Origin: a virus
Virus record (IMG/VR): IMGVR_UViG_3300042922_000383
Coordinates: 1 to 35,978 of that record
Direction: 5' to 3' (one strand)
DNA: 35,978 nt
The notes under the pieces were generated by a model. That model saw only the letters and a program-made list of their open reading frames with translations. It was not told where the DNA came from and did no database searches. The translations under genes were made by a program, and so were the position numbers. Below are positions 1 to 35,728 of the stretch, piece after piece (position 1 is the first letter of the stretch; each line of letters opens with the position of its first letter).

Positions 1-45
1 CTTCTAAGCCGTGTGTCGAGCGTTCGAATCGCCCCAGGCGCACCA
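1..45 (+). other. attP core: 3' part of tRNA-Arg(TCT), anticodon loop to CCA
   Basis: The 45 bases parse exactly as a tRNA 3' portion: anticodon loop 1-7 (CTTCTAA, anticodon TCT), 3' anticodon stem 8-12, variable loop 13-17, T stem 18-22 and 30-34 around loop TTCGAAT at 23-29, 3' acceptor strand 35-41, discriminator A42 and CCA 43-45. The T stem has one A-C mismatch (19/33). The bases before it in the circle (35847-35851) cannot pair with 8-12, so homology to the host gene starts in the anticodon loop. Integration here would rebuild the 3' end of a host tRNA-Arg gene. It is a fragment, not a functional tRNA gene. The second copy is 35852-35896. Confidence 0.85.
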
Positions 46-127
46 TATAATTCAATACTCCATGAGGATGGTCACTACATAAACCGTTTGTCATGGTCAC
101 GAAATGGTCACAATAACATGCTATAAC
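1..127. repeat. Terminal direct repeat, left copy (circular-contig overlap)
   Basis: These 127 bases are identical to 35852-35978. The repeat includes not only the tRNA-like core but also int-proximal arm sites, which a prophage would carry at one end only. The length of exactly 127 equals a common de Bruijn k-mer size, so this is most simply the overlap left when a circular molecule is assembled. A natural direct terminal repeat is less likely because the ends coincide with attP. Confidence 0.85.
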
Positions 128-143
128 ATGTTGATGTGACCAT
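68..143. promoter_or_regulatory. Integrase arm-type sites, int-proximal arm of attP
   Basis: The octamer ATGGTCAC occurs at 68-75, 93-100 and 104-111, and inverted at 136-143. The pair at 93/104 has an 11-bp period. The same pair with the same period lies on the other side of the core at 35710-35728. This two-armed arrangement fits arm-type binding sites for the N-terminal domain of the adjacent tyrosine integrase. ATAACATG is also repeated at 113-120 and 123-130. Confidence 0.65.
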
Positions 144-148
144 TTTTT
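102..148 (+). terminator. Rho-independent terminator at the 3' end of int, built from arm sites
   Basis: 102-112 pairs with 135-145 (11 bp), then after a small internal loop 115-120 pairs with 127-132 around a 6-nt loop, and T runs follow at 143-148. The outer stem is formed by two inverted arm-site octamers. The T tract is on the + strand, so in a prophage it would stop tRNA transcription from running antisense into int. Confidence 0.6.
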
Positions 149-1271
149 ATTTTGCCACAACATATAATTTTTGAATTGTATCTGTAATAATTTCATCGTG
201 GTTAGGCATTGCGTGGCTGTACAATTCTAAAGTATGAGTTTGCTTGCTATGACCTAATCTTTTTGCAACGTCAGAAAGTGCTACATCGCCAGTTGCTAAT
301 AATTCCGTTGCATGGGTATGTCTCAATACGTGAAAATTTCTATATGGAACATTTGCATGATTTTCATCAAGTAAGGTTTTCCAAACTCTTTCGAAATTTC
401 GAGGAGCAATAGGAGTATCATTTTTCGTAACAAAACAAAGTTTTTCTTGCTTGAGGTCTAAATTTTTAGTTTTGGCTTTAAGCTTTTTTAATTCATTCAT
501 ACATTCTTCTGTAATTTTAATTTTTCTGATTGAAGCCTTAGTTTTAGGAGTTTCAATTATCAATCCTAAAGAACCAGAACATTGTAATGATCGGCAAATA
601 TGAACAGTAGAATTAAATAGACTAACGTCACGCCACTGTAGCCCTAAAACTTCGCCTAAACGCATTCCTGTATGAGTTGCAAGTAGTAACATAGGATAAT
701 ACTTTTTAAAGATGCTATCAGCCTTGCAAGAAGACAATATAGTTTCAATTTCTTTTTTAGTAAACGTTTCAATTTGCTTTTTCTCAAACTTTGGCGGGGT
801 AACAACTGTCATAATGTTTTTTTGAATCATTTCAAGTTCAAATGCTTTATTATACATATCTTTTAATAGCTTATGAACCTTTGCGATCGTGCAATTAGAA
901 AGGGCGGGTAATGTCTGGTATAACTGCTGTACTTGAAGCGGTTTTAAATCTTGCAATTTAACACCTGCAATTAAAGCTAGATGCTTCGCTAGGCTTGTAT
1001 AGCGTTCATATGTTCGTTGCTTTACCGTATCTTTCTTATAAGTTGTTAACCATTGCAATGTCCATTCCCCAACAGTAAGATCAGACGGATTTACAAACGT
1101 TCCTGTATGCATGTTATGCAATTGTTCTGTTTTCCATTTAACTGCTTCTTCCTCTGATTTACATCTTTTAAATAATCTTTTTCCTTCTGGTGTAGTTATG
1201 GAAGCGCGATAAGAGTCGCGTGCTTCATCATAAGTTATACCACCTTCGCCATTTGAACGTTTTTTTGCCAT
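147..1271 (-). CDS. int: Tyrosine-recombinase phage integrase
   Basis: 374-aa site-specific recombinase that would integrate the phage circle at a tRNA-Arg gene and, with an excisionase, excise it. Residues 1-60 look like an AP2-type arm-binding domain (GEGGITYDEARDSYRA), about 65-160 are the SAM-like core-binding domain, and 170-370 the catalytic domain. Visible catalytic residues: R204 (TGMRLGE), a lysine near 243-245, H314-x-x-R317 (HVLRHTH), H341 (LGHS) and nucleophile Y351 (LELYSHA). Length is normal for Bacillota phage integrases. The ATG at 1271 follows AGAAAG on the minus strand. The gene reads leftward and ends 102 bp from the attP core, the usual int-attP arrangement. Confidence 0.96.
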   Translation of the reverse strand: MAKKRSNGEGGITYDEARDSYRASITTPEGKRLFKRCKSEEEAVKWKTEQLHNMHTGTFVNPSDLTVGEWTLQWLTTYKKDTVKQRTYERYTSLAKHLALIAGVKLQDLKPLQVQQLYQTLPALSNCTIAKVHKLLKDMYNKAFELEMIQKNIMTVVTPPKFEKKQIETFTKKEIETILSSCKADSIFKKYYPMLLLATHTGMRLGEVLGLQWRDVSLFNSTVHICRSLQCSGSLGLIIETPKTKASIRKIKITEECMNELKKLKAKTKNLDLKQEKLCFVTKNDTPIAPRNFERVWKTLLDENHANVPYRNFHVLRHTHATELLATGDVALSDVAKRLGHSKQTHTLELYSHAMPNHDEIITDTIQKLYVVAK

Positions 1272-1877: not shown

Positions 1878-1913
1878 AAGGACTGGATTTATAAAATCTA
1901 GTCCTTTTTATTT
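1878..1913. terminator. Bidirectional terminator between the 31-aa gene and the repressor
   Basis: AAGGACTGGATT (1878-1889) pairs with AATCTAGTCCTT (1895-1906) with one G-U. T-rich tracts follow in both directions, so it can end the rightward small gene and the leftward repressor, whose TAG (1898-1900) lies inside the stem. Confidence 0.75.
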
Positions 1914-2287
1914 TGTTGATCATTAAATAATTTCATGGCAATTTTTTCGAGTTCTTTCCATTCGTTCTCATCTAATTTACTAAGCAAAGATGCAAATTTT
2001 TTAGGAAAATCACTTTCATCTTTTTGCATTAGTTTTGCTGCCCAAATCGTAATTTCTTCATCGCGATCAAGTTTATGCATCATATCCCCTTCACCAGTAC
2101 GAAGCCAGTGCTCGTTGATATCGAATTTTAAACATAACAATTGGATAAATGGATTAGTAGGTGGAACTCTTCCTAATTCAATATTTGAAATAGCATCGCG
2201 AGAAACACCGAGGATTTTACCAAAAGCTTCTTGTGAGGTTTTTTGGGGTAAGGACTTTCGAACTTGTTTAATTCTTTCATGAATCAT
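1898..2287 (-). CDS. CI-like XRE repressor without a peptidase domain
   Basis: 129-aa helix-turn-helix repressor, the likely lysogeny maintenance protein. HTH_XRE spans residues 1-65: RIKQVRKSLPQKTSQEAFGK, then LGVSRDAISNIELGRVPP as turn and recognition helix. The rest is helical and acidic. It has no S24 peptidase region, so RecA-driven self-cleavage is not expected. The ATG at 2287 is chosen because AGGTGGTGAT precedes it (2291-2300); an upstream in-frame start (2314) would include this SD. It diverges from the early operon across a region with three operator-like repeats. C-terminal pattern DENEWKELEKIAMKL is common in Bacillota phage repressors. Confidence 0.85.
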   Translation of the reverse strand: MIHERIKQVRKSLPQKTSQEAFGKILGVSRDAISNIELGRVPPTNPFIQLLCLKFDINEHWLRTGEGDMMHKLDRDEEITIWAAKLMQKDESDFPKKFASLLSKLDENEWKELEKIAMKLFNDQQNKKD

Positions 2288-2309
2288 ATAATCACCACCT
2301 TTTAAAAAT

Positions 2310-3504: not shown

Positions 3505-4053
3505 ATGTTAGACGTACCAATGATTGATTCTCTTGGCGATATGATTGATTTGGCAATGATGGCTACTAATATTCCACCAAAGGCGTTGGCTCTGGAGATT
3601 GGTTATTCAGTCGATAGTCTTTACAGCGCAATTAAGGGCGAACGTTCAATTCCGGTCAAGGCGAGAGCAAAACTCGCAAGTAAAAATTTAATTATGGCTT
3701 GCGCGGTGGCAATGGAAAGCACAGGGTTAAGTCAAATATTCGGATATCAAAAAGTAGACAGGCATATTCAATCAATGATATTGCGGGTAAAAAACAAGGA
3801 TAAAGAAATTGGAGTTTTACTAGACGATCTGCCACTAATTTTACTAGACAAAGAAAGGCTTGAAGATTTATCCGATGCTGATTTAGAAAAAGTAAAAATA
3901 GTAGCCGAAAAACTCGGTGAACGTATGAATTACTCATTAAATTTAATGATGGAGCTAGATAGCCGCTATAGGTTAGATATAACAGAAGACATCCAGAAAC
4001 AGAAAAAATCGCCCGTGCTAGCACACAGACGACTTTCGGAGAATCAGATTTAA
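3505..4053 (+). CDS. HTH-containing phage regulatory protein
   Basis: 182 aa. Residues 18-60 look like an XRE-type helix-turn-helix (ATNIPPKALALEIGYSVDSL then YSAIKGERSIPVKARAKLAS). The remainder is helical and charged (KERLEDLSDADLEKVKIVAEK). AAGGAGCTGATAAAA precedes ATG 3505. It closes the early regulatory cluster and is followed by a terminator-like hairpin, then the replication block. Position suggests an early activator or antirepressor-type regulator, in the place lambda has CII, but there is no clear CII similarity. Confidence 0.65.
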   Translation: MLDVPMIDSLGDMIDLAMMATNIPPKALALEIGYSVDSLYSAIKGERSIPVKARAKLASKNLIMACAVAMESTGLSQIFGYQKVDRHIQSMILRVKNKDKEIGVLLDDLPLILLDKERLEDLSDADLEKVKIVAEKLGERMNYSLNLMMELDSRYRLDITEDIQKQKKSPVLAHRRLSENQI

Positions 4054-4110: not shown

Positions 4111-4313
4111 ACTAAAACCATACATAAAATTGTTTAATTTAATTATAAATTATGTGTGGTAAAAGGTCAAGGAAATCAAGGCTTTTACAGCCTATTGTAT
4201 CTTGATAATTAGTATTAATCTTTCGACAATTAGATACAGATTACAAATATTAGCATATCCAATATATAAAATAATATGCAATATTTATAAAATTGATTAC
4301 AGGAGAGTTTGCT
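4111..4313. other. Hairpin-rich AT leader of rep; candidate origin region
   Basis: This gene-free stretch holds two further inverted repeats: 4118-4127 with 4150-4159 (10 bp, one G-U) and 4246-4258 with 4274-4285 (AATATT, bulged A, GCATAT against ATATGC, AATATT). The second lies just before the rep SD. HUH initiators nick in hairpin or ssDNA structures, often near their own gene, so this is the natural place to look for an origin. No nick-site consensus was recognised. Confidence 0.35.
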
Positions 4314-5057
4314 ATGCCATACATAAGAGAAAAAATAAAAGCTGGTAAGCAAAAAGAAGTAAAAGTTTATCATGCATATAAATATCAATCAAAAAAAGCT
4401 AGTAGAAGTAAAAACGTTGAAATCACAGCCGAAGAAATGGCGAAAATAAATACTTATAACGCGGAAAGAAAACTTCGGATTTTACTAAATGCCAATTTCA
4501 AAGAAGATGATCTGTATTTGACTTTGACCTACAAAGAGGAAACTCCAGATGCAGCAGAAGCAAAAAGTTGTCTTGCGAAGTTCACTAGAAAGTTAAGAAA
4601 TTTTTATAAAAAAATAGGAAGCATGCTGAAATATATTGCCGTTACCGAGTACAAGAAAAAAAGAATCCATCACCATATGCTAATAAATGCAAAATCAAAA
4701 GTAAAGAAAAGTGATATCGTGAAGTTTTGGCAACATGGATTTGTGAAAGTAGAGTTTTTCGGAGGAGAACCAGACGATTGTTTAAAACTCGCAAGCTATT
4801 TTATCAAAGAAACAAATAACACTTTTAATACAGATGAAAAAGTGCATGGGCTTCGCTGGATTGGCAGTAAAAATTTAATTCATCCAGTGCCAGAGGTCAA
4901 AATAGTAAAAGCCGATTCATGGCGTGACGATCCTAAAGCAGATAAAGGCTATTACATAGATATATCAAGTATAAAAACATGGCGTACAAATGACGGTTAT
5001 ATGTGCCAGTTTTACCGAATGATTAAATTGGAGCCAATACCATCATGGCGGCAGTAA
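4314..5057 (+). CDS. HUH-type rolling-circle replication initiator (Rep)
   Basis: 247-aa endonuclease that would nick one strand at an origin and attach covalently to the 5' end to prime rolling-circle replication. Motif 1 LYLTLTY at 67-73; metal-binding HUH motif IHHHML at 118-123 (H119, H121); catalytic motif SYFIKE with Y162 and K165, a single-tyrosine type. The LRHP-like/PEVKIVKADSWR stretch (186-206) matches my memory of a Rep family common in Bacillota mobile elements and phages. ATG 4314 is used because it follows AGGAG; a TTG at 4293 would include the SD. No helicase domain is present and no replicative helicase, primase or polymerase gene is seen in the genome. The next gene overlaps its 3' end by 13 bp. 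Confidence 0.85.
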   Translation: MPYIREKIKAGKQKEVKVYHAYKYQSKKASRSKNVEITAEEMAKINTYNAERKLRILLNANFKEDDLYLTLTYKEETPDAAEAKSCLAKFTRKLRNFYKKIGSMLKYIAVTEYKKKRIHHHMLINAKSKVKKSDIVKFWQHGFVKVEFFGGEPDDCLKLASYFIKETNNTFNTDEKVHGLRWIGSKNLIHPVPEVKIVKADSWRDDPKADKGYYIDISSIKTWRTNDGYMCQFYRMIKLEPIPSWRQ

Positions 5058-5356
5058 CAGTAAAAACCAAAATAGCAAAAGCAGGATTTACATTTTGCTT
5101 AGAATGCTTAGTCGAAGGAAATCAGATAGCCTTTAAATACCCAATGTGCATAATGCGGTGTCCAAAATGCGGCAACGAATGGCGGGTACTATCATCAATT
5201 TGCGAAAAGTGCCATATAGCGGCTGGTGTTCCGTACGCTGTAGAATGTAAGCCATGTAATAGCAGACTAAAGGCAAAGCAAAGGGGTGGGAATATAAATT
5301 GTCATGTAAGCACACGCATTACGATGCAGGAGAAGGATATATCTGCAACATTATGA
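5045..5356 (+). CDS. Cysteine-rich zinc-ribbon protein
   Basis: 103 aa with four CxxC knuckles: CLEC (19-22), CPKC (39-42), CEKC (53-56) and CKPC (68-71), i.e. two zinc-ribbon sites. The basic, threonine-rich tail lacks a known domain. ATG 5045 overlaps the end of rep, so translation is probably coupled; the SD is poor. Its stop overlaps the start of the next small ORF (ATGA at 5353). Position suggests an accessory DNA-binding protein for replication, but no function is established. Confidence 0.7.
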   Translation: MAAVTVKTKIAKAGFTFCLECLVEGNQIAFKYPMCIMRCPKCGNEWRVLSSICEKCHIAAGVPYAVECKPCNSRLKAKQRGGNINCHVSTRITMQEKDISATL

Positions 5357-5454
5357 AAAAGCCGTGTCCTTTTCGAAAACCAAATTCAAATACTTGCAAA
5401 AATGCTTTCAAAATAAATAGCGAACGAATAGGGGGAATAGTATGCGAACCGTAA
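5353..5454 (+). CDS. 33-aa cysteine-containing mini-protein
   Basis: Starts in an ATGA overlap with the zinc-ribbon gene and ends inside the start of recU, so it exactly bridges the two. Sequence MKKPCPFRKPNSNTCKNAFK..., with three cysteines. GGAGAAGGA lies about 12-20 bases upstream. The tight overlaps favour a real gene; the small size and imperfect SD spacing leave doubt. Confidence 0.4.
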   Translation: MKKPCPFRKPNSNTCKNAFKINSERIGGIVCEP

Positions 5455-5972
5455 CACAAAAACAAGCGTGGCAAAACAGAGTATCAAATGCACAAGGTCA
5501 TTTAATCGAGGGGAAAATAAAAAAGGCTTGCTTATATTATCAAGTTCAAGGGATTGCTGATATTGATAAAACACCAGAACCGTTTAAAGTAATTAAAAAA
5601 CTTAAAAATGGTACATGCCTTGTCAGACCGACTAGAGATAAAGCACAACCAGATTTTAAAGGTACATTGAAAAATGGTACAAGCATCATCTTTGAAGTAA
5701 AAAGCACCATGAAAGAATCAATTAGTAGAAGCGCATTAACGGAAAATCAAGTAAACGTATTACAAGCTTATCAACTAATGGGAGCGCAGAGTTTTGTTTG
5801 TGTGTCAATACAGAATGAATTCTTCATGATTCCTTGGATTATGTGGAGAGATATGAAACTTATCTATGGGCGGGCATCGTTGAAACAAGAAGACATACAA
5901 GAATATAAAGTACCATACCAAAATGGCATTATGTTTCTGCATCACATTTTAAAAGCGAAAGAAGGAAAATAA
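5442..5972 (+). CDS. recU: RecU-like Holliday junction resolvase
   Basis: 176-aa nuclease of the RecU family (PD-(D/E)XK fold) that resolves branched recombination intermediates. Visible: NAQGHLIEGKIKKAC near the N-terminus as in RecU (family: N-x-x-G-x-x-x-E), PDFKG with D71, and FEVKST with E85 and K87, then an aromatic C-terminal part (FFMIPWIMW). Length is close to phage RecU homologues. GGGGG precedes the ATG. It fits a recombination step in replication or packaging-concatemer resolution, and it stands one base before parA, so the two are in one transcript. Confidence 0.85.
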   Translation: MRTVTQKQAWQNRVSNAQGHLIEGKIKKACLYYQVQGIADIDKTPEPFKVIKKLKNGTCLVRPTRDKAQPDFKGTLKNGTSIIFEVKSTMKESISRSALTENQVNVLQAYQLMGAQSFVCVSIQNEFFMIPWIMWRDMKLIYGRASLKQEDIQEYKVPYQNGIMFLHHILKAKEGK

Positions 5973-5973
5973 A

Positions 5974-6720
5974 ATGAAAACAATATCATTGATAAATCTT
6001 AAAGGCGGAGTAGGAAAGACAACAGTAGCCGTAAACACCGCACATATATTAAATAAACTATATGGGGCGCGTGTACTTCTTATAGATAATGATAAACAAG
6101 GCAATGCAACAAGTTTCTTTAAGGCAAAACAAGAAGATCAAGTAACCATATCCGATATTTTAGCCAATTTACAAACGGATATAACCGAAGCAATCCAAAA
6201 AACAGCCTATGACAATTTAGATATTATAGCTTGCGACTACTCATTAGAAACAGCCATACAAATGGTAATGGAAGATACTCTTAACCCTCAACACAACCGC
6301 TATGAAAAAGCACTAGCAAAAATCAAAGATAACTATGACATATGTATCATAGATAATCCACCGGATAAAAACATAGCGGTCTTAAATTCACTAGCAATCA
6401 CCGATGAAGTGATTATAGTTGCAACGCCAGATGAATACAGTTTGCAAGGCATGAAAGAAATGCAAGAGTACATAGATCACGCAAGATTTTACAAAGGAAA
6501 TTTATTGTTTCGCGGTTGTTTACTCAATCAATTTATAAAAACGTCAAACAGTTTCAAAATAAAAGCAAAAATAAAAAATCATTATCCAGTGTTTAATACT
6601 AACCTTCGCTACACAAAAGATAAATTAAATATCAAAGTGCCGATATTAGAGCTGTCACCTAGAAGCGGCTTTGCAATTGATATCAAAAGATTTGTTAGAG
6701 AACTAATAGGAGAAAAATAA
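5974..6720 (+). CDS. parA: ParA/Soj-type partition ATPase
   Basis: 248-aa Walker-type ATPase for segregation of low-copy replicons. Deviant Walker A KGGVGKTT at 10-17, Walker A' LLIDNDKQGNAT around 35-46, and Walker B CIIDNPP near 126-132. It has no N-terminal HTH, so it resembles Soj/type Ib rather than P1 ParA. Preceded by AAGGAAAATAAA and one base after recU. It is followed by a 19-bp palindrome and ParB, giving a complete parA-site-parB module. Confidence 0.93.
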   Translation: MKTISLINLKGGVGKTTVAVNTAHILNKLYGARVLLIDNDKQGNATSFFKAKQEDQVTISDILANLQTDITEAIQKTAYDNLDIIACDYSLETAIQMVMEDTLNPQHNRYEKALAKIKDNYDICIIDNPPDKNIAVLNSLAITDEVIIVATPDEYSLQGMKEMQEYIDHARFYKGNLLFRGCLLNQFIKTSNSFKIKAKIKNHYPVFNTNLRYTKDKLNIKVPILELSPRSGFAIDIKRFVRELIGEK

Positions 6721-6722
6721 AA

Positions 6723-6741
6723 TGTGTTCATAATGAACACA
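6723..6741. promoter_or_regulatory. parS-like 19-bp perfect palindrome, copy 1
   Basis: TGTGTTCATAATGAACACA: 9-bp perfect half-sites around a central A, placed between parA and parB. An identical copy occurs at 11061-11079; with flanks the identity extends over 26 bp (6717-6742 and 11055-11080). Two identical palindromes, one in the par locus, fit a ParB-binding centromere; an autoregulatory operator is the alternative. Confidence 0.7.
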
Positions 6742-6758
6742 AATTGGAGTGAGTGAAA

Positions 6759-7739
6759 ATGGCAATGTTGCCAAAACGTAATATATCAACGTGGTTAAAC
6801 AGTCAATCACAACCGCAAGAAAAACAGGAAGAAATAAATCTTCCTGTCAAGATGATAAGTGTCTATGATCTTATACCAAATCCGCTAAACTTCTATGAAT
6901 TAAACGATATGGAAGAATTAGAAACCGCAATCGAAATACAGGGCGGAGTAACAACAAGCCTTGAAGTAAAAGCGGTTGAAAACGGTAAGTTCATGGTAGT
7001 TGCTGGTCATAGACGAAGACAAGGCGTAATTAACATACTTCAAGGAGAAAATGAAAAAAACATTAGTGACAAAGTTCCATGTATCGTAAAAGAATACACA
7101 AAAAATCAAGAAATAACCGCGCTTATCTTTTCAAACAAATATCAAAGAGTGCGTACACAAACAGAAAAATTGAAAGAATTTCAGATATTGAAACCGATTC
7201 TTAAAGAAATATATGAAGATGAAAAAGAAAAAGGCTTAATAACTGGTAGATTTAGAAAGTTCTGTGCTGACTTTTTCGAAATTTCAGAAGCAACCGTCCA
7301 CCGCATGAACGCTATGGAAAAGTTGACAGAAGAAGTAAAACAAGGAATTGAACAAGGCGATATAACACCAACAGCCGCAATCCAATTAACCAGTCTTTCT
7401 GCCAGTGAACAAAAAGCAGTGTATGAGGATACCACAAAGCAAGGTACAGCAACCGTAAAAACAATTAAAGAAACAATTAAAGAAACCATAAAGCAAGAGC
7501 AACCACCACAGCCAGAAATGAGCGAAACCGAAATAAAAATAGTTGCCTTAAATGATGTAAGGAGAATCATTGTCAGAGAGATTGAAAAAGTACTAATTTA
7601 CAATCAAGATTTTGGGCGGGTAACAGTAAACAGTATCAAGCTAGAACGTTTAAACCTACTTAAACAAGTATTAGAAAATGAACTAAATGATTTAAACGGT
7701 CAAAACATTTTTGATGATGGCGGTGAAGATGATGTGTAG
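6759..7739 (+). CDS. parB: ParB-like partition protein
   Basis: 326-aa ParB/Spo0J family protein that would bind the centromere and stimulate ParA. N-terminal ParB/sulfiredoxin-like domain (about 30-130): IPNPLNFYELNDMEELETAI, then VVAGHRRRQG as the GERR-like CTP-binding box. Central HTH region: TGRFRKFCADFFEISEATVH, followed by GIEQGDITPTAAIQL. The C-terminal part is helical with acidic end DDGGEDDV. ATG 6759 is 9 bases after GGAG; a GTG at 6753 is too close. parB overlaps the next gene's start. Confidence 0.9.
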   Translation: MAMLPKRNISTWLNSQSQPQEKQEEINLPVKMISVYDLIPNPLNFYELNDMEELETAIEIQGGVTTSLEVKAVENGKFMVVAGHRRRQGVINILQGENEKNISDKVPCIVKEYTKNQEITALIFSNKYQRVRTQTEKLKEFQILKPILKEIYEDEKEKGLITGRFRKFCADFFEISEATVHRMNAMEKLTEEVKQGIEQGDITPTAAIQLTSLSASEQKAVYEDTTKQGTATVKTIKETIKETIKQEQPPQPEMSETEIKIVALNDVRRIIVREIEKVLIYNQDFGRVTVNSIKLERLNLLKQVLENELNDLNGQNIFDDGGEDDV

Positions 7740-11036: not shown

Positions 11037-11225
11037 ATGGTAACATGCGACAATATAAAATGTGTTCATAATGAACACAACATATGTAATTTAAAAGATA
11101 TTTCAATCATTGACGTTACATGTGTTAGTCGGCGAAAACAAGAAACAGAAATTAATTATCAATCGTTAATGAAAAGCAGTGAGCCTACAGGCTGTAAACG
11201 CAATGGAAAGTGGGTGAGAAATTAA
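11037..11225 (+). CDS. DUF1540-like cysteine-rich protein carrying a parS-like site
   Basis: 62 aa, GGGAGG SD. The N-terminus CDNIKCVHNEHNIC matches the spaced-cysteine pattern of DUF1540-type small proteins (C-x4-C-x6-7-C); further cysteines at C29 and C53. Codons 9-15 are supplied by an exact copy of the 19-bp palindrome found between parA and parB. It abuts the following HNH gene. Confidence 0.65.
   Translation: MVTCDNIKCVHNEHNICNLKDISIIDVTCVSRRKQETEINYQSLMKSSEPTGCKRNGKWVRN
11061..11079. promoter_or_regulatory. parS-like 19-bp perfect palindrome, copy 2
   Basis: Exact repeat of 6723-6741 inside the coding sequence of the 11037 gene, read as codons C V H N E H plus part of the next. Identity beyond coding need (26 bp with flanks) supports a protein-binding site. 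Confidence 0.65.
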
Positions 11226-11568: not shown

Positions 11569-12324
11569 ATGCCAAGAGCAAGAAGTCCAAATAGGGATAA
11601 AGCTTTTGAAATATGGAAAGCCAGTAAAGGTAAAAAGAAAAACAAAGATATTGCTAGTGAATTGGGCGTATCTGAAAAGCTAATTTCACGCTGGAAACAA
11701 GAAGATTCGTGGAAAGAAAAATCAACTAAAAAATCTACTAATAGAAAAAGTAGAAATGATGAAAAAATAAAAAGAGAAAAAAAGCAGCAAGAAAGTTTAA
11801 AAAATAATTTATCAAAGTCAATTGAAGAAAATGACGAACTAACAGAAAAACAAAAACTTTTTTGTTTGTATTGGATTGATAACAGAAACGCAACACAAGC
11901 GTATTTAAAAGCACATCAATGTAGTTATAACACCGCGAGAACCGAAGGAAACTTAAACCTTACAAAGCCTTGCATAAAGCGAGAAATAGAAAAATTAAAG
12001 AAAATACGCAATAAAACCCTGATGTTAGACCCGGAAGATATAGTAGAAAAATACATGAAAATAGCATTTGCAAATATTACGGACTTCGTTATGTTTAGTA
12101 AAGATCAAGTTTGGGTTTATGGCAATGAAATGGTTGACGGTGGACTAATTTCAGAAGTTAAACAGACAAAAAGCGGTGTAAGTATAAAACTTGAAAATCG
12201 AATGAAAGCCCTTGAATGGTTATCAAATTATTTTAATATGAATCCGATGGACAAACATAAAATAATGTATGATAACGCTGTGCTTGATATACGAAAGAAA
12301 GAAGCAGAATCAAAGGACTGGTGA
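11569..12324 (+). CDS. terS: Terminase small subunit, PBSX/Terminase_2 type
   Basis: 251 aa. N-terminal HTH (KNKDIASELGVSEKLISRWK, about 23-43) for DNA recognition; a lysine-rich linker; then the Terminase_2 core: LTEKQKLFCLYWIDNRNATQ followed by AYLKAHQCSYNTARTEGNLN. The C-terminal part (ITDFVMFSKDQVWV) matches PBSX-type TerS. SD-like GGGCGGGTGG precedes ATG. Unusually, a second, P27-type TerS lies at 13245 next to TerL, so the division of labour is unclear. Confidence 0.8.
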   Translation: MPRARSPNRDKAFEIWKASKGKKKNKDIASELGVSEKLISRWKQEDSWKEKSTKKSTNRKSRNDEKIKREKKQQESLKNNLSKSIEENDELTEKQKLFCLYWIDNRNATQAYLKAHQCSYNTARTEGNLNLTKPCIKREIEKLKKIRNKTLMLDPEDIVEKYMKIAFANITDFVMFSKDQVWVYGNEMVDGGLISEVKQTKSGVSIKLENRMKALEWLSNYFNMNPMDKHKIMYDNAVLDIRKKEAESKDW

Positions 12325-12325
12325 T

Positions 12326-12994
12326 ATGGCACAAGACTTTGCTAAACAACTTTATACATCTAAAGCATGGATAGAGCTGAGAAGAAACCTAATTATAGAA
12401 CGTGGTCCTATTTGTCAGAAGTGCGGTAAGGTAATGATTGACACATCAAAACTAATAGGTCATCACATAAAAAAGATAACTCCACAAAATATAAATGATA
12501 TAAATATCATACTCAATCCTAAAAACATAGAGCTGATATGTCATGATTGTCATAACTTAGAACCTCATCATTTCGTAGGTAGTAGGAAACATAACATATA
12601 CCTTGTGTATGGTGCGCCTTGTAGTGGTAAGACAACGTTAGTCAATCAAATGGCTGAACGTGGCGATATCATATTAGATATTGATAAACTGTTTGAGTGT
12701 ATAAGTGGCATGGCATTGTATGATAAGCCGGACAATCTTAGGTTTAATGTATTTGCCTTGCGGGATAAGATACTTGATATGATTAAAACACGATTCGGTA
12801 AATGGCATGATGCTTACGTGATCGGGACTTATGCTAATAAACAGGAACGTGAACGAGTCGCAAGAGAAGTGGGAGCGGAGTTAATATATTGTGAGAGTAC
12901 AATAGAAGAATGCTATGCAACAATGGGTGAGCGAAGATTGCCTAATGAATGGATGAAGTATATAGATAAATGGTTTAGTGAGTATACGGAATGA
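12326..12994 (+). CDS. HNH endonuclease fused to a P-loop kinase-like domain
   Basis: 222 aa. Residues about 10-80 are an HNH domain: CQKCGK zinc knuckle, GHHI, NIELICHDCHN. Residues about 90-222 are a P-loop NTPase: YGAPCSGKTT Walker A, ILDIDKLF as an aspartate-bearing second motif, and TIEECYATMGERR as a lid-like segment, similar to polynucleotide- or nucleoside-kinase folds. Start ATG 12326 follows AAGGACTGG; an earlier start overlaps terS. A nuclease joined to a possible end-kinase, between two TerS genes, suggests DNA-end processing in packaging; that is inference. Confidence 0.75.
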   Translation: MAQDFAKQLYTSKAWIELRRNLIIERGPICQKCGKVMIDTSKLIGHHIKKITPQNINDINIILNPKNIELICHDCHNLEPHHFVGSRKHNIYLVYGAPCSGKTTLVNQMAERGDIILDIDKLFECISGMALYDKPDNLRFNVFALRDKILDMIKTRFGKWHDAYVIGTYANKQERERVAREVGAELIYCESTIEECYATMGERRLPNEWMKYIDKWFSEYTE

Positions 12995-13008
12995 AAGGAA
13001 TGGTTACA

Positions 13009-13125
13009 ATGCATCATTACATAACAAAGTATAGAGAACGAGGAGTAAGATACGCAACATCGTGGATACAAATAAATATTTTTGGATTGAAATTTTGCTT
13101 ATGGGAAAAGAAAATAAAATTATGA
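13009..13125 (+). CDS. 38-aa basic mini-protein
   Basis: AAAGGA lies 9 bases before ATG 13009 (in-frame ATGs at 12991, overlapping the previous stop, and 13000 are possible). Product MHHYITKYRERGVRYATSWI... is basic with a short hydrophobic end. No family recognised. Confidence 0.45.
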   Translation: MHHYITKYRERGVRYATSWIQINIFGLKFCLWEKKIKL

Positions 13126-13244
13126 GAGCTGCCCCCCATCCTAAAAATTTGAAATCGTAAACACTAAACCGGTGGCATTACCCTTTTTACACATATACCG
13201 AAAATTTGACTTTTCCCTAGAAAGTTTTCAAAAATAAAAGACAG
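13126..13244. other. Non-coding gap between packaging genes; cos candidate
   Basis: 119 bp with a C6 run (GCCCCCCATCC near 13131-13141) and no ORF or clear terminator. In HK97-like phages cos often lies beside HNH and TerS genes. This is the only gene-free gap of size in the packaging block besides the late promoter. Location is the only support. Confidence 0.25.
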
Positions 13245-13571
13245 TTGGTGATAATCATCAAGGTAGAAGAAGAATACACAAGAATCAAGGATTTGTTTGA
13301 AGGTACAGACGAAAAACAGTTATCTTTGCTAGATGGCACTATATGGGAAGCAGCACGATTGCGGGTAGAACTTGATCGTTTAAATGATATCGTCAAGATA
13401 ACTGGACTAGTAAAAATTCATAAAGACAATCCAACGATGCAAAAAGAGCTACCAATATCGCGATTAATAACAAAAGTGAGAGCGAATTATTTAAATTACG
13501 TTGCTAAACTGAGTAATATTCTAGGTAAAAATATTGACGAAGAAGATGACGATTTAACGGATTATGAATAG
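13245..13571 (+). CDS. Terminase small subunit-like protein, P27 family
   Basis: 108 aa. The pattern LDRLNDIVKITGLVKIHKDN followed by PTMQKELPISRLITKVRANY and YVAKLSNILG resembles P27/Terminase_4 small subunits, which normally pair with the HK97-type TerL found downstream. Acidic tail. The start is uncertain: TTG 13245 or GTG 13248, both with poor SD. It is separated from TerL by a membrane-protein gene. Confidence 0.7.
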   Translation: MVIIIKVEEEYTRIKDLFEGTDEKQLSLLDGTIWEAARLRVELDRLNDIVKITGLVKIHKDNPTMQKELPISRLITKVRANYLNYVAKLSNILGKNIDEEDDDLTDYE

Positions 13572-13583
13572 TGAGGTAGTAGT

Positions 13584-13919
13584 ATGGATGATGTTTCAAT
13601 AATGAAGGTGAATAGTGTGGAAAAAGAAAGTAAAATTTCAGATATATTCATAAGAATGTTTTTAGTTTGGCTTAATTTAGTTTGTATAATATTTTTTACT
13701 ATGATATACGGATATATATTACAAGAGTTTTTTAAAAACATAATTGGATGGATTTTTATTATTCCTTTTGCTTCATTTATGTACATACCTTTAATGTGGT
13801 GTCTTTGCAAAGATTTATTTTACATATTGATAAATAAAACTCAACGAAAAAGATCAATGTTGAGAGTGCCACCTAGACCAAAACATATACCTGCACCAAG
13901 CAGACAAAACAAAATCTAA
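13584..13919 (+). CDS. Membrane protein between TerS and TerL
   Basis: 111 aa with two or three hydrophobic segments (about 22-47, 53-70, possibly 72-85), then a basic proline-rich tail (RVPPRPKHIPAPSR). GTGAGG precedes the ATG. A membrane protein is unusual within a packaging cassette, so it may be a lysogenic-conversion insert. No family recognised. Confidence 0.6.
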   Translation: MDDVSIMKVNSVEKESKISDIFIRMFLVWLNLVCIIFFTMIYGYILQEFFKNIIGWIFIIPFASFMYIPLMWCLCKDLFYILINKTQRKRSMLRVPPRPKHIPAPSRQNKI

Positions 13920-13928
13920 GGGGGTGAT

Positions 13929-13946
13929 CACATGGGAAACCATGTG
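13929..13946. other. Perfect hairpin with GAAA tetraloop before TerL
   Basis: CACATGG, GAAA, CCATGTG: 7-bp stem with a GNRA loop, 25 bp before the TerL start and overlapping a 6-codon ORF (MGNHVQ, ATG 13932) that has its own AGGGGG. Could tune TerL translation. Confidence 0.45.
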
Positions 13947-13970
13947 CAATAAAATAGGGAGGATTGCGGA

Positions 13971-15716
13971 ATGTTAGAAGTTTTAAGAATGAAATATCCG
14001 CAATCTTATTTGTTGGAGTATTGCCAAAAATGCAAGTCTGGTGAAATCGTTATAGGCAGAGAGTTAATGCTACAACTTGATATGCTTATTGAAAATTTCA
14101 GCGATCAAGATATAAAAATTGATTTTACAGATGCAAACAAGCGTATTGATTTTATCGAAACCAAATGTAAACATTCAGAAGCCCCTTTTGCTGGAAAACC
14201 TTTTTTACTAGCTTTATTTCAGAAAGCGTTCATTGAGTCAATTTATATTTTTCAAATATATGATGATGAACTAGAAATGTGGGTAAGAAAATATCAAGAA
14301 ATAATATTTTTAGTAGCCAGAAAAAACGGCAAGACTCCACTAATCAGTGCAATATGTTTAGCGGAGTTTTTTTGTGGGGAAATTGGAACAAAAATATTAT
14401 GCAGTAGTAATGATTATTCACAGGCTGACCTTGCTTTCCAAGCCATAAACAATATGAGGGAACAAAGTCCTTCGCTTGAAAAGGTAACAAGAAAAAATAT
14501 TAAAGGTATTTTCTTTGGCAATCCCAAACGGAAAAATAAAAAAGGTAAGTTTAGTTATCAAAATAAAGGGAACATCTTAAAAATATCTGCTAAAACTGGC
14601 GCAAAAGAAGGTAAAAATATTCGCGCTGGAATGGTTGATGAAATACATGAGTTAAAAGATAATACTTCTATCATGCCGATTAGACAAGCCTTATCAACTC
14701 AAAATAATCCAATATATTTTGAACTAACCACAGAAGGGTTTACCGATGATGGCTATCTAGATAATCGCTTAAAAGAAGCTAGGCAAGTGATAAATGGTGA
14801 GCTAGAAAGACCGCGTTTGTTAATATGGCTTTTCACACAAGATTCAGAAGAAGAAATTTGGCAAGATGAAGGTTCTTGGTATAAATCTAATCCTGGCTTA
14901 AAAATAATCAAGAAAATAAGTTTTTTAAGGCAAATGGTTGAAGAAGCTAAATCAAGCGCAAGTACAAAAGCGTTTGTGTTGGCAAAAGATTTTAATCAAA
15001 AACAAAATAGTGCAACTGCTTGGTTAACTGATGAAGATATAAACAACCCTAATTCTTTTGATGTTAACGAATTCAAAAATAAATACTATATAGGAAGTCT
15101 TGATTTTGCTGAAACTACTGATTTATGCAATGCCAAGGCTCTTTTTTATGACAAGGTGAAACAGCGTACATGTACGCTAACAATGTATTTTATTTGCGAA
15201 AACAAAGCAGATGCAATTTTAGAAGATGGCAATAAATTAAATCAAGAAAAGAAAAATTATCGTGAATGGGCGAAACAAGGACTAGTAACAATTTGCCCGG
15301 GGGATGAAGTTGACCCTGCCTTTATTGTTAAATGGTTTTATAGTCTATATGAAAACTATAAAATGTTGCCGTATAAAGTTGGTTTTGATAATTGGCATAG
15401 TACAGGTTTTAAAAATCTATTCGCTGAATATTTTGGTGAGGAAATTTTAGAAAGGATTGGTATGGATTACAATAGTTTATCCAATCCTATGCGATTATTA
15501 GAATCAGCATTAAAAAATAAAACGCTGATCTATAACAACCATGAAATTGATATATGGAATTTAAGGAATGTATCAATAAAAATGGATAATATAGGTCGCA
15601 TCATGCCAGTGAAAAAATTCAATCAATCTAAAAATCGGATTGATGGTGCTTTAGGATTTATAATAGCCTACGCAACATACAGCAGATTCAAATCTGAATA
15701 CATGGATAAATGTTAG
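13971..15716 (+). CDS. terL: Terminase large subunit (HK97/P27-type)
   Basis: 581-aa packaging motor and nuclease. Walker A variant VARKNGKT near 115-122, Walker B AGMVDEIHE near 218-226, and the motif LTTEG as coupling segment. Nuclease domain: SLDFAETTDL (about 374-383) with the first catalytic aspartate, and NRIDGALG (about 556-563) with the last. Length and motif order fit the Terminase_1 family associated with HK97-like portal and capsid. GGGAGG precedes the ATG; 13 bp to portal. Confidence 0.95.
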   Translation: MLEVLRMKYPQSYLLEYCQKCKSGEIVIGRELMLQLDMLIENFSDQDIKIDFTDANKRIDFIETKCKHSEAPFAGKPFLLALFQKAFIESIYIFQIYDDELEMWVRKYQEIIFLVARKNGKTPLISAICLAEFFCGEIGTKILCSSNDYSQADLAFQAINNMREQSPSLEKVTRKNIKGIFFGNPKRKNKKGKFSYQNKGNILKISAKTGAKEGKNIRAGMVDEIHELKDNTSIMPIRQALSTQNNPIYFELTTEGFTDDGYLDNRLKEARQVINGELERPRLLIWLFTQDSEEEIWQDEGSWYKSNPGLKIIKKISFLRQMVEEAKSSASTKAFVLAKDFNQKQNSATAWLTDEDINNPNSFDVNEFKNKYYIGSLDFAETTDLCNAKALFYDKVKQRTCTLTMYFICENKADAILEDGNKLNQEKKNYREWAKQGLVTICPGDEVDPAFIVKWFYSLYENYKMLPYKVGFDNWHSTGFKNLFAEYFGEEILERIGMDYNSLSNPMRLLESALKNKTLIYNNHEIDIWNLRNVSIKMDNIGRIMPVKKFNQSKNRIDGALGFIIAYATYSRFKSEYMDKC

Positions 15717-15729
15717 GGGGTGAGAACAT

Positions 15730-17019
15730 TTGATAGTTAACTATTTGACAAATCTATTAGCGAAATATAAACAAAAGCAGCAATTAAAAACGCTGACCTC
15801 AATTCTAAATGATGGGCGGGCAATATTTTCTAGCTTTGGCGAAGACGTATATATGTCTGACTTTGTGAATAACTGTATTGATCGTATCGCAACAGAGATA
15901 AGTAAAATAGATATTGTATCTGTAGTACAAAAGCCGGGTAGTATTCGTCAGCAGAATGATGATATTACAAGGCTTTTTCGTTTTAAGCCTAATCCACTAC
16001 AAACAACGAAAGATTTCCTTGCATGTTGCGAATGGTTAAGGCGTAAAGATCATAATTGTTTTATTTATCCTCAATATGATATTGTACTTGATGTTCAAGG
16101 CAATCCATACCGAAAATACACAGCGTTTTATCCGCTTAATCCTACACAAATAGAAATAGGCTTGGATGATTCTGAAAGCATTTGGGAAGTGAAATTTTAT
16201 TGGCGTGATGGAACATTTGATATATTGCCATATGCTGACCTTATCCATTTAAGATGGCGCAGAGGGAAAAACACAATTGTTGGCGGTGGAAATGATTACG
16301 GGCAACCAGATACAAAAGATTTATTGCATTCTGTTACTGCATTAGATCAGGTAATTCAAGGATTGCCTAAGTCGATTGAAGCTAGTTTAAAAATAACAGG
16401 TTTATACCATGTTAAAACACTAGTTGGCACTAGTGAAATAAAAACAGCTAGAGATAATTTCGAAGAACATATTTCTACTAGTAAAACGGGCATTGTTGCT
16501 ACTGATCTAGCAGGAGATTTTACCCCAATCAACATAAAAGCAGCGGAAATAAAACCAGAAACAATGGAATTTTTAAAATCAATCATTCGTAATAGATATG
16601 GAATTTCCGATGCGGTATTATCTGGAGATTATACAGGCGAACAGCATGGCGCATTCTATCAATCGTGCTTAGAGGATTTTATTGTAGAGTTTGAACAAGG
16701 TACAAGTGCTTGCTTGTTTACGCAACGTGAGCAAGACGTAGGTCATAGAGTGAAAGGATATTACAATAAGACAGCATACTTATCAACCGCGAATAAAATT
16801 GCACTTGCTACATTAGCGACTAATACAGGACTGAAAACATTAAATGAAATCAATGATATGTTTGGTGACGAACCTTTTGAGGGCGGGGATAGACGACTAC
16901 AATCACTTAATTTTACGAATGTAAATATTGTTGATGCTTACCAATTGAATATGGCTGGTACAAACGATACAGGTACAACAAATAACGACACAGGAAAGGA
17001 TGATTCCAATAATGCCTAA
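15730..17019 (+). CDS. Portal protein, HK97 family
   Basis: 429-aa ring protein through which DNA enters the head. Typical features: DFVNNCIDRIATEISKIDIV near the N-terminus, then YPLNPTQIEI and YADLIHLRW, and the NRYGISDAVLSGDYTGEQHG wing/stem motif near 287-310. The C-terminus is low-complexity (NDTGTTNNDTGKDD). The start is TTG 15730, 9 bases after GGGGGTGAG. Its 3' end overlaps the protease reading frame by a few bases. Confidence 0.93.
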   Translation: MIVNYLTNLLAKYKQKQQLKTLTSILNDGRAIFSSFGEDVYMSDFVNNCIDRIATEISKIDIVSVVQKPGSIRQQNDDITRLFRFKPNPLQTTKDFLACCEWLRRKDHNCFIYPQYDIVLDVQGNPYRKYTAFYPLNPTQIEIGLDDSESIWEVKFYWRDGTFDILPYADLIHLRWRRGKNTIVGGGNDYGQPDTKDLLHSVTALDQVIQGLPKSIEASLKITGLYHVKTLVGTSEIKTARDNFEEHISTSKTGIVATDLAGDFTPINIKAAEIKPETMEFLKSIIRNRYGISDAVLSGDYTGEQHGAFYQSCLEDFIVEFEQGTSACLFTQREQDVGHRVKGYYNKTAYLSTANKIALATLATNTGLKTLNEINDMFGDEPFEGGDRRLQSLNFTNVNIVDAYQLNMAGTNDTGTTNNDTGKDDSNNA

Positions 17020-17662
17020 AAATAAATTACCAACCAAAGATCAAAAAGTAATTCGCAGTTTTGGCATGCCGGATATAAGGGTGGCTGATGAAAACGGAGT
17101 CATTGAAGGACACGCGGCAGTTTATAATCAAAGAACAAATATCGGCGATTGGTTTTATGAAATAATTGAGCCGGGGGCTTTTGATGGATGTAATTTTGAT
17201 GATGTACTATTTACTGCTAACCATCAAGTCAATGAAATACCTTTAGCCAGAAGTCGTAGAAACAATAGTAATTCAACATTACAAATAACAACTGATCAAC
17301 AAGGATTATTTGTAAGAGCTAATTTAGATATTCAAGGAAATTCTAAAGCTAAAGACTTGTATTCTGCTGTAAGTAGACAAGATATAACTGGTATGAGTTA
17401 CATTTTTTATGTGAAAGACCAAAGATGGGAGAACCTTGATTCTGATATGCCAACTAGACATATTGATAAAGTAGCAAGAGTAGTCGAAACAAGCGCAGTA
17501 AATTATCCGGCATATTTAGGAACTGATATAAACGCGCGCGATAAAGCGGCATTGGATAATGCCAAACTTACGTTGGATAACGTAAGATCGCAGGAGTTGG
17601 ATAACTCTAAAACGCTTGAATTATATAAATTAAAAAATGAAATTTTAGGGGGAAATAATTAA
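17012..17662 (+). CDS. Prohead protease, HK97 type (S78)
   Basis: 216-aa maturation protease that trims the capsid N-terminus. The family pattern is clear: EGHAAVYN, EIIEPGAF, FTANHQ with catalytic H71, GMSYIF with catalytic S129, and VVETSAVNYPAY. The tail after residue 175 is helical and may act as part of the scaffold. ATG 17012 is preferred; ATG 17000 directly abuts the AAAGGA. The stop overlaps the capsid start by one base (TAATG). Confidence 0.92.
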   Translation: MPKNKLPTKDQKVIRSFGMPDIRVADENGVIEGHAAVYNQRTNIGDWFYEIIEPGAFDGCNFDDVLFTANHQVNEIPLARSRRNNSNSTLQITTDQQGLFVRANLDIQGNSKAKDLYSAVSRQDITGMSYIFYVKDQRWENLDSDMPTRHIDKVARVVETSAVNYPAYLGTDINARDKAALDNAKLTLDNVRSQELDNSKTLELYKLKNEILGGNN

Positions 17663-18936
17663 TGAAAGAAAAATTAGTGAAGTTATTAAAAGCAAAAAAG
17701 GAAGCACGTGCTGCTTTAAAAGAAAAATCTAAAAAAAGTACAGACGTTGAAGAATTAAGAAGTATTAATTCGCAACTTGAAAGTATTGATAATGAAATTA
17801 CCGATTTAAACAGCTTAATTACCGAAGCAGAAGGGCAACCAGATGATGGACAAGCGCAAAGAACAAAAGTAGTTAATGGTACTGAACAACCAGAGCCAAG
17901 AAGTTATACTCCCGGTGTTGGATTTACCCCTATTGCTGGTTCTACACCAGTAGGAGGAGAGCAAAGGGAAGATGTAGACCAATACGCAACAGTAGAATAC
18001 AGAAAAGCATTTATGGATTTTTGCAAAACTGGTAAACAATCACCAGAATTACGTGCAAATGCAACAACGACCACTTCTGACGTTTCAGCGGTTATTCCAT
18101 CTACCATCTTAAACGAAGTTATCAGAAAAGTTACATCATACGGTCAAGTTTATAGTCGTTGCCGTAAACTTAGTATTCCGGGCGGCGTAACTGTACCTAT
18201 TTTATCATTGAAACCTGTAGCTACGTGGATTGGCGAAAGCGCAGTTTCAGACAAACAAAAAGTACAAGCTAATGAAAAGGTATCATTTAGCTATTACGGA
18301 TTAGAATGTAAAGTAGCAACATCTTTATTAGCTGATACAGTAACCCTTATTGGTTTTGAAAATACAATTATTGATTTAATTACTGAAGCTATGGTAATTG
18401 CTATTGAAACCGCTATTATTAAAGGGGATGGAGTTGGTAAAGCATTAGGTATAACAGTCGATACTAGAGTTGCTAGTACACAAATTGTTACTCTTTCATC
18501 TAGTGATATTGCTGACTGGTCAGCATGGAAGAAAAAAGTATTTGCTAAGATGCCTTTAGCGTACAAAGCAGGAGCATCTTTCTTTATGGCTTCTGGAACA
18601 TTTGAAGGTTATATTGATGGTATGGTTGATACAAACGGTCAACCTATTGGACGTACTAATTTTGGGATTACTGATGGAATACAAGAGCGATTTGGCGGTA
18701 AAGATGTAATTGAAGTTGAAGACGATATCGTTGCTAATTATGATGATGCAGCCGTTGGTGCTGTTGTTGCAATTTATTGCAACTTGAAAAATTATGCTGT
18801 TAATTCAAATATGCAAATGACAATGTTCAGATATTTAGATCACAATACAAACGAATGGGTTGATAAAGCAATTTTAATGATGGATGGTAAATTGCTAGAC
18901 CCTAATGGTGTAGTTATTATCAAGAAAGGCGCATAA
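17662..18936 (+). CDS. Major capsid protein, HK97 fold
   Basis: 424 aa. Residues 1-65 are a charged coiled coil (the delta/scaffold domain: KLLKAKKEARAALKEKSKKS), followed by a flexible linker. The fold proper begins near 130 (TTTSDVSAVIPSTILNEVIR), with VATWIGESAVSDKQ and the spine/A-domain later. Cleavage by the preceding protease is expected between the linker and about residue 130. It is translationally coupled to the protease and followed by a strong terminator. Confidence 0.95.
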   Translation: MKEKLVKLLKAKKEARAALKEKSKKSTDVEELRSINSQLESIDNEITDLNSLITEAEGQPDDGQAQRTKVVNGTEQPEPRSYTPGVGFTPIAGSTPVGGEQREDVDQYATVEYRKAFMDFCKTGKQSPELRANATTTTSDVSAVIPSTILNEVIRKVTSYGQVYSRCRKLSIPGGVTVPILSLKPVATWIGESAVSDKQKVQANEKVSFSYYGLECKVATSLLADTVTLIGFENTIIDLITEAMVIAIETAIIKGDGVGKALGITVDTRVASTQIVTLSSSDIADWSAWKKKVFAKMPLAYKAGASFFMASGTFEGYIDGMVDTNGQPIGRTNFGITDGIQERFGGKDVIEVEDDIVANYDDAAVGAVVAIYCNLKNYAVNSNMQMTMFRYLDHNTNEWVDKAILMMDGKLLDPNGVVIIKKGA

Positions 18937-35709: not shown

Positions 35710-35728
35710 GTGGTCACGAAATGGTCAC
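35710..35728. promoter_or_regulatory. Integrase arm-type sites, distal arm of attP
   Basis: GTGGTCAC (35710-35717) and ATGGTCAC (35721-35728), an 11-bp-period pair identical in design to 93-111 on the other side of the core. Confidence 0.65.

What the first reader, a model, noticed from the sequence alone, without database searches (positions are those of the whole stretch)
4314..7739. Integrating siphophage with a plasmid-like HUH Rep + RecU + ParAB module
The genome has int/attP and also a rolling-circle HUH initiator and a complete partition locus, but no replicative helicase, primase, polymerase or helicase loader. ParAB is pointless for a purely integrated prophage, so an autonomous, segregated circular stage (phage-plasmid life style) is plausible. 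HUH-driven replication is known in tailed phages such as P2, but this Rep family is plasmid/element-like.
Basis: partly seen in the sequence, partly recalled or inferred. Interest (0 to 1): 0.65.

Follow-up and report, generated by a model that had tools for sequence, protein, structure and literature searches.

The report
Integrating phage with rolling-circle replicon, ParABS
This is a tail-bearing virus of anaerobic bacteria that can insert itself into the bacterial chromosome but also carries a complete plasmid-type kit (a replication starter with its start site and a DNA-segregation machine with its docking sites), and the same kit turns up in many related, mostly integrating, viruses, which blurs the usual line between chromosomal prophage and phage-plasmid.

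Summary
The window is a circularly assembled siphophage genome (exact 127-bp terminal repeat, 35,851-bp circle) with int, a tRNA-Arg(TCT) attP, an HUH Rep, RecU, ParA and ParB, and no replicative helicase, primase or polymerase found. I also located both cis-sites. (i) A candidate double-strand origin, CTTGATA at 4201-4207 behind a hairpin, 113 nt upstream of rep; the motif lies 38-150 nt upstream of rep in 58 of 117 relatives and resembles the pC194 plasmid origin. (ii) A candidate parS, a 17-19-bp palindrome (GTGWYCRnnnYGRWCAC) between parA and parB and again at 11061; 78 of 115 ParB loci have it near parB, against a control mean of 1.2. Rep-ParABS is a recurrent module of Clostridia/Negativicutes phages; 24 of 33 Rep+ParAB records also carry an integrase. 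Relatives lie inside chromosomes; none was found in PLSDB. So 'phage-plasmid' is only partly supported: the best reading is an integrating temperate phage with a replicating, partitioned episomal stage, comparable to SXT/R391 ICEs. The Rep is a phage family. The parS family and systematic coexistence with integrase appear unreported (limited literature search). Function is inferred from sequence only.

The parts
1..45 (+). attP core = 3' end of tRNA-Arg(TCT), anticodon loop to CCA (again at 35852-35896)
   Evidence: exact match to tRNA-Arg(TCT) 3' ends in three Negativicutes genomes; integrated elements there share the same left junction
1..127 (.). direct terminal repeat of the record (= 35852-35978); circle closure
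   Evidence: 100% identical 127 bp
69..142 (.). right attP arm: TGGTCAC at 69, 94, 105 and inverted at 136 (candidate Int arm-type sites)
   Evidence: all 6 TGGTCAC of the circle lie around attP
147..1271 (-). tyrosine integrase
   Evidence: PF00589 1e-25; phrog_1 4e-65
1898..2290 (-). CI-like repressor (HTH_3)
   Evidence: PF01381 3e-9; phrog_8
3505..4053 (+). early regulator conserved upstream of Rep in relatives
   Evidence: phrog_1124; 56-59% identical ORF before Rep in L005 and G078
4167..4207 (+). candidate double-strand origin: TCAAG 4167-4171, hairpin AGGCT-TTTAC-AGCCT 4179-4193, nick motif CTTG^ATA 4201-4207
   Evidence: CTTGATA 38-150 nt upstream of rep, same strand, in 58/117 Rep loci, with hairpin
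4314..5057 (+). Rep, HUH endonuclease (initiator)
   Evidence: PF23343, phrog_3584; invariant H119-x-H121 and Y162; model pLDDT 87, Foldseek hits mostly HUH Reps
5045..5356 (+). Cys-rich (Zn-ribbon-like) small protein next to Rep
   Evidence: homologue directly after Rep in G001, G076a/b, L009, L010, L020, L083
5442..5972 (+). RecU-like Holliday-junction resolvase
   Evidence: PF03838 6e-15; phrog_843 3e-39
5974..6720 (+). ParA ATPase (deviant Walker A KGGVGKTT, no N-terminal HTH)
   Evidence: PF13614 1e-39; phrog_164 6e-52
6723..6741 (.). candidate parS 1: TGTGTTCATAATGAACACA between parA and parB
   Evidence: perfect palindrome; consensus GTGWYCRnnnYGRWCAC near parB in 78/115 loci vs control mean 1.2
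6759..7739 (+). ParB (ParB/Noc/KorB CTPase fold, GHRRR motif, HTH)
   Evidence: phrog_4715 4e-34; profile hits Noc 7e-11 and Spo0J; Foldseek Noc/ParB/KorB
11061..11079 (.). candidate parS 2, identical copy with shared flanks, 0.5 kb upstream of terS
   Evidence: 29-nt repeat D6 at 97%, exact palindrome
11569..18936 (+). TerS, HNH-P-loop protein, TerL, portal, protease, major capsid protein
   Evidence: PHROG matches; 73% TerL relatives lack a detectable Rep-ParAB module
35711..35728 (+). left attP arm: TGGTCAC at 35711 and 35722

Best explanation
This is a temperate siphophage of a Negativicutes host that integrates at tRNA-Arg(TCT) and owns a complete plasmid-type replication-partition module. 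Shown by sequence: attP with arm-type repeats, an HUH Rep with a conserved candidate origin 113 nt upstream, ParA, a ParB-CTPase homologue, and two copies of a palindrome that recurs beside parB across this phage group. Inferred mechanism: after entry or excision the circle is nicked by Rep at CTTG^ATA and replicated by rolling circle with host helicase, primase, polymerase and SSB, which feeds packaging. While the circle is present in a lysogenising or induced cell, ParB loads at parS and ParA moves the copies apart, so that both daughters keep one until Int integrates it. Stable lysogeny is most likely integrated, so ParABS serves a facultative or transient episomal stage, as the partition system of SXT/R391 ICEs does.
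For: Rep is an HUH initiator: PF23343/phrog_3584, invariant HxH and Tyr, AlphaFold model matching SIRV1 Rep, circovirus and AAV Rep and pMV158 RepB. Candidate origin: CTTGATA on the rep strand 38-150 nt upstream in 58/117 non-redundant Rep loci, with only 12 forward hits elsewhere in the scanned 1.9 kb and 28 scattered reverse hits; the consensus ACTTGATAAAAGTATTAACTT follows a hairpin with compensatory changes and shares CTTGATAA..GGGTAACT with the pC194 origin printed in PMC7072734. ParABS: parB-proximal palindrome in 78/115 loci (permuted-palindrome controls mean 1.2, max 10), in 52/80 ParB clusters when the loci used to find it are left out, 58 of 82 sites within 50 nt of the parB start; in 39 of 51 virus records, with no hits of the reversed pattern in them. 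Integration: attP/attB identity and arm repeats; integrated relatives; int or LSR in 24/33 Rep+ParAB records. Circle: 127-bp terminal repeat. Inference: the record starts at the exact base where tRNA/attP identity begins and the repeat equals a common assembler k (127), as expected if the assembly graph branched there because attL (integrated) and attP (circle) copies were both in the sample. Rep-only relatives Arawn/Idris show the Rep does not require ParAB.
Against: No experiment and no reads. A circular assembly is equally expected from virion DNA or a briefly excised prophage. Rolling-circle plasmids usually lack ParABS, so the pairing is unusual. No close relative was found as a plasmid in PLSDB. 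About one third of ParB loci lack the consensus site. The assembly-graph argument depends on undocumented assembler behaviour.
Confidence: 0.6

Rival explanations
1. Ordinary integrating prophage in which ParB-parS has been turned into a regulator: ParB binds the parA-parB gap and the site upstream of terS to autoregulate and to time late gene expression, as KorB or the N15 Sop system do.
For: The second site lies 0.5 kb upstream of terS in the window, and one Cormatin site lies 36 nt before terS; the ParB model also matches KorB; N15 sop affects late gene expression (cited in PMC11652158).
Against: parA is kept next to parB in nearly all loci, and ParA is not needed for a mere repressor; the distal sites do not sit upstream of terS consistently in other genomes (positions).
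Confidence: 0.18
2. True phage-plasmid: the lysogen keeps the phage as a low-copy circular plasmid driven by Rep and ParABS, and Int mainly resolves multimers or integrates rarely.
For: Complete replicon and ParABS; circular assembly; 9/33 Rep+ParAB records show no integrase or large serine recombinase, and a plasmid prophage with ParA/ParB is known in Clostridia (phiCD38-2, PMC8026635).
Against: Intact tRNA attP with arm sites, integrated relatives, no relatives among 72,556 plasmids.
Confidence: 0.14
3. The par genes are passengers of an exchangeable early module and have no role in this phage.
For: The module is exchangeable: phages with 73% identical TerL lack a detectable Rep-ParAB, and Rep occurs without ParAB in Arawn/Idris and others.
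Against: ORFs are intact, and the palindrome is perfectly kept in two copies and maintained across widely diverged phages.
Confidence: 0.08

Closest known systems
SXT/R391 ICEs (TraI/oriT replication + SrpMRC partition, PMC4489591)
   Same: Integrating element with its own circular-form replication by a relaxase and an active partition system that stabilises it
   Different: Conjugative, ParM-type partition, no virion; here a tailed phage with ParABS
Cluster A mycobacteriophages with parABS (RedRock, Miko; PMC7157519)
   Same: Temperate siphophages with phage-borne ParABS and two parS loci
   Different: There parABS generally replaces the integrase, parS is an array of 8-bp direct repeats and replication is RepA- or RNA-based; here int and ParABS coexist, parS is a single palindrome and Rep is HUH
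Butyrivibrio phages Arawn/Idris (Rep of the same family)
   Same: Rep 39% identical, same origin motif upstream (L006)
   Different: No ParA/ParB seen
Flavonifractor phage Cormatin
   Same: ParA-ParB with the same parS family (GTGTCCAAGTTGGACAC)
   Different: Replication by an initiator + DnaB helicase, not HUH Rep
pC194-type rolling-circle plasmids
   Same: Origin core CTTGATAA..GGGTAACT (PMC7072734)
   Different: This Rep matched no plasmid Rep family in Pfam other than PF23343; no ParABS or virion genes there
Phage-plasmids P1, N15, phiCD38-2
   Same: Virion genes plus a partition system
   Different: Here a working-looking integrase/attP; plasmid state not shown

Membership tests
HUH Rep, REP_ORF2-G2P / phrog_3584 | profile match over the nuclease domain | tested here: met
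   PF23343 65 bits vs cut-off 27.8; phrog_3584 1e-52
HUH Rep, REP_ORF2-G2P / phrog_3584 | HxH metal motif and catalytic Tyr | tested here: met
   H119, H121, Y162 invariant in 16 sequences
HUH Rep, REP_ORF2-G2P / phrog_3584 | HUH endonuclease fold | tested here: met
   pLDDT 87; best Foldseek hit SIRV1 Rep 2x3g, E 1.5e-3, prob 1.00, then circovirus/AAV/pMV158 Reps; E-values are modest
HUH Rep, REP_ORF2-G2P / phrog_3584 | nicks a specific origin | not testable with these tools
   candidate origin only
Class I ParABS | ParA with deviant Walker A | tested here: met
   KGGVGKTT; PF13614
Class I ParABS | ParB CTPase/HTH protein encoded next to parA | tested here: met
   GHRR invariant in 16 ParBs; Noc/Spo0J profile and fold hits; Pfam ParB_N and HTH_ParB only below cut-off
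Class I ParABS | centromere (parS) near parAB | tested here: met
   conserved palindrome by position and statistics; binding not shown
Class I ParABS | stabilises a replicon | not testable with these tools
   needs a stability assay
Integrating temperate phage | integrase plus attP matching a host tRNA | tested here: met
Integrating temperate phage | this phage seen integrated | tested here: inconclusive
   no integrated copy held; relatives are integrated; assembly start at the att boundary suggests attL in the sample
Phage-plasmid | virion genes together with plasmid-type replication/partition genes | tested here: met
Phage-plasmid | lysogen maintained as plasmid | not testable with these tools
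   no reads or lysogens
Phage-plasmid | same or close element recorded as a plasmid | tested here: not met
   no PLSDB record with Rep or ParB at high identity/coverage

The most novel reading that the evidence does not exclude
A broad group of Clostridia and Negativicutes temperate phages inherits itself by two routes at once: integrase-based lysogeny plus a rolling-circle replicon held by its own ParABS with a shared centromere family (GTGWYCRnnnYGRWCAC), so that a segregated episome is a regular stage of lysogenisation rather than an alternative to integration.
Probability: 0.42. Interest if true: 0.75.

Novelty: new variant of a known kind. Interest (0 to 1): 0.6.

Why it matters
Partition and plasmid replication genes are described as very rare in phages and as marks of phage-plasmids (PMC10879196), and in the best-studied phages parABS replaces integrase (PMC7157519). 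Here both coexist as the rule in a large, mostly uncultured group, with candidate origin and centromere sequences that can be tested directly. It would warn against calling phage-plasmids from par genes alone, provide portable rolling-circle and partition parts for poorly tractable anaerobes, and make the question of how phages are inherited before integration testable.

Tried and rejected
(1) An 8-mer TCTTGATA scan found the motif near rep in 1 of 95 loci and I first rejected a pC194-like origin; an unbiased k-mer comparison and the 7-mer CTTGATA showed that this was too strict, and the rejection was reversed. (2) Four small plasmids with weak Rep similarity do not have CTTGATA upstream of rep, so the origin motif is not shared with those plasmids. 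(3) The distal parS as a terS-linked packaging or late-gene signal: true in the window and Cormatin, not general. (4) Circularity of relatives: 16 viral records tested have no terminal repeats, so it says nothing about their life style. (5) A second host-flank search for the int side of attP in viral contigs found nothing. (6) attL/attR repeats of the G076 prophage: only a 14-nt repeat found, boundaries left open. (7) A conventional Clostridia plasmid with ParB 26% identical (pOBV01) lacks a good parS consensus match in the 16 kb around parAB. (8) The literature search for five parS 17-mers found no paper.
Full report
WHAT IS THERE. The window is a 35,978-base virus record whose first and last 127 bases are identical, i.e. 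a circular 35,851-bp assembly. It encodes a complete siphophage: TerS/TerL, portal, protease, capsid, connectors, major tail protein, tape measure, J-like fibre, endolysin. Between the lysogeny genes and the late genes lie Rep 4314-5057, a small Cys-rich ORF 5045-5356, RecU 5442-5972, ParA 5974-6720 and ParB 6759-7739. Pfam and PHROG scans of about 37 ORFs found no replicative helicase, loader, primase or polymerase; a few short ORFs were not scanned.

INTEGRATION. The first 45 bases are the 3' half of tRNA-Arg(TCT), from the anticodon loop to CCA. They match exactly in three Negativicutes genomes; two of these hold a second, 3'-fragment copy, i.e. elements inserted at the same site with the same left junction. 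All six TGGTCAC of the circle lie within about 140 bp of this core, on both sides (simulated sequences never exceed 3 in 440 bp), as arm-type integrase sites would. Int ends next to attP. Inference: the record starts at the very base where tRNA identity starts, and the 127-bp overlap is a common assembler k; a closed circle would be cut at an arbitrary base, so the likeliest reason is a graph branch at that base, created by attL of integrated copies beside attP circles in the same sample. This is suggestive, not proof.

REP AND ITS ORIGIN. Rep belongs to phrog_3584/PF23343. Its full-length relatives are tailed phages and prophages of Clostridia and Negativicutes; plasmid matches are 25-30% over part of the protein. 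His119/His121 and Tyr162 are invariant, and the model (pLDDT 87) finds mainly HUH Reps in the PDB, with modest E-values. Comparing upstream regions of related Reps without a preset motif gave ACTTGATAA at about -115. The 7-mer CTTGATA lies on the rep strand 38-150 nt upstream of rep in 58 of 117 non-redundant loci, with 12 forward hits elsewhere in the 1.9-kb regions. Its context, hairpin then ACTTGATAAAAGTATTAACTT, is conserved, and three of four consensus hairpin pairs show compensatory changes. In the window it is 4201-4207, hairpin 4179-4193. The pC194 origin used in PMC7072734 (TTCTTTCTTATCTTGATAATAAGGGTAACTATTGCC) shares CTTGATAA, and in L015/L069 also GGGTAACT. I therefore propose nicking at G4204^A4205.

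PARABS. ParA has a deviant Walker A motif (KGGVGKTT). ParB matches Noc, Spo0J and ParB by profile and fold and has an invariant GHRR motif. A perfect 19-bp palindrome lies between parA and parB and again at 11061-11079 (expected 0.04). Three other loci had a related repeated palindrome. The pooled pattern GTGTYCANNNTGRACAC falls in the parA-parB gap in 36 of 96 loci, against a mean of 0.18 for 40 permuted palindromes. The widened pattern is near parB in 78 of 115 loci (control mean 1.2, max 10), in 52 of 80 ParB clusters with the discovery loci left out, mostly within 50 nt of the parB start. It occurs in 39 of 51 virus records, often twice, with no reversed-pattern hits in those records. I read it as parS. 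No paper in the library holds any of five of these 17-mers, and a Clostridia plasmid with a distant ParB lacks a good match in the 16 kb around its parAB.

HOW COMMON, AND IN WHICH STATE. ParA relatives are in at least 446 viral stretches. Of 50 viral records chosen for Rep and/or ParAB, 33 have Rep + ParA + ParB; 24 of these carry a tyrosine integrase or large serine recombinase and 9 show neither (records may be fragments). In genomes, Rep + ParA + ParB lie inside a single 5.1-Mb contig (G076; its length is that of Pelosinus sp. UFO1 as I remember it), with a 470-aa serine recombinase at the prophage edge beside sporulation and division genes, in Sporomusa sp. KB1, and in a 965-kb Clostridium contig. 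No PLSDB plasmid has this Rep or ParB at high similarity. Phages with 73% identical TerL lack a detectable Rep-ParAB, so the module is exchangeable; Arawn has Rep without annotated ParAB.

INTERPRETATION. The Rep and origin are best read as the phage's replication system, and need no plasmid life style. ParABS is the part that implies a stage in which few circles must reach both daughter cells. Because integration machinery is intact and relatives are integrated, a facultative or transient episomal stage fits better than a pure phage-plasmid. SXT/R391 ICEs are a close functional parallel (PMC4489591). [quoted passage not shown] single examples of int + ParAB were known (PMC4490671). Regulatory use of ParB (KorB-like) remains the main rival.

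LIMITS. No reads, no lysogens, no binding or nicking data. About a third of ParB loci have no consensus site. Host assignment is to Negativicutes by tRNA identity and nearest relatives only.

Noticed in passing
L234:18095-19860 and L233:1-9000 (G076:C1 about 2,628,000-2,639,000): The related prophage with Rep/ParAB in G076 lies directly beside a sigma-factor C-terminal ORF that looks like sigE, next to spoIIGA- and ftsZ-like genes, with a large serine recombinase at the junction; could matter for sporulation control, boundaries not resolved.
   Followed up: partly
window 12269-12994: HNH nuclease fused to a P-loop kinase-like domain between terS and terL; conserved at this place (40-68%) in TerL relatives L286-L295.
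   Followed up: partly
window 21097-21837: Major tail protein carries a C-terminal CBM_X2 (carbohydrate-binding) domain, PF03442 3e-15.
   Followed up: no
window 8529-9389: PAPS-reductase-like protein (PF01507 1e-28), a common phage auxiliary gene family.
   Followed up: no
window 5045-5356: Small Cys-rich ORF directly after Rep is conserved with Rep in Sporomusaceae-type prophages; possible Rep partner.
   Followed up: partly
L005:8776-9294, L234:12216-12632: Relatives carry an SSB gene after Rep; the window has none in this place.
   Followed up: no
G082:C6:687573-689207, G083:C1:1682563-1709247: tRNA-Arg(TCT) is an integration hot spot: a 26.6-kb element in G083 and a 1.6-kb remnant in G082 share the same core.
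   Followed up: partly
L026:9525-10868: ParB of an integrase-less relative has an extra C-terminal part (residues 308-432) that matches proteins of large Enterococcus phages, 34-39%.
   Followed up: no
G435:C167 (70,583 bp): A contig of a gut isolate genome carries four exact parS-like sites; possibly two phages or a phage-plasmid.
   Followed up: no
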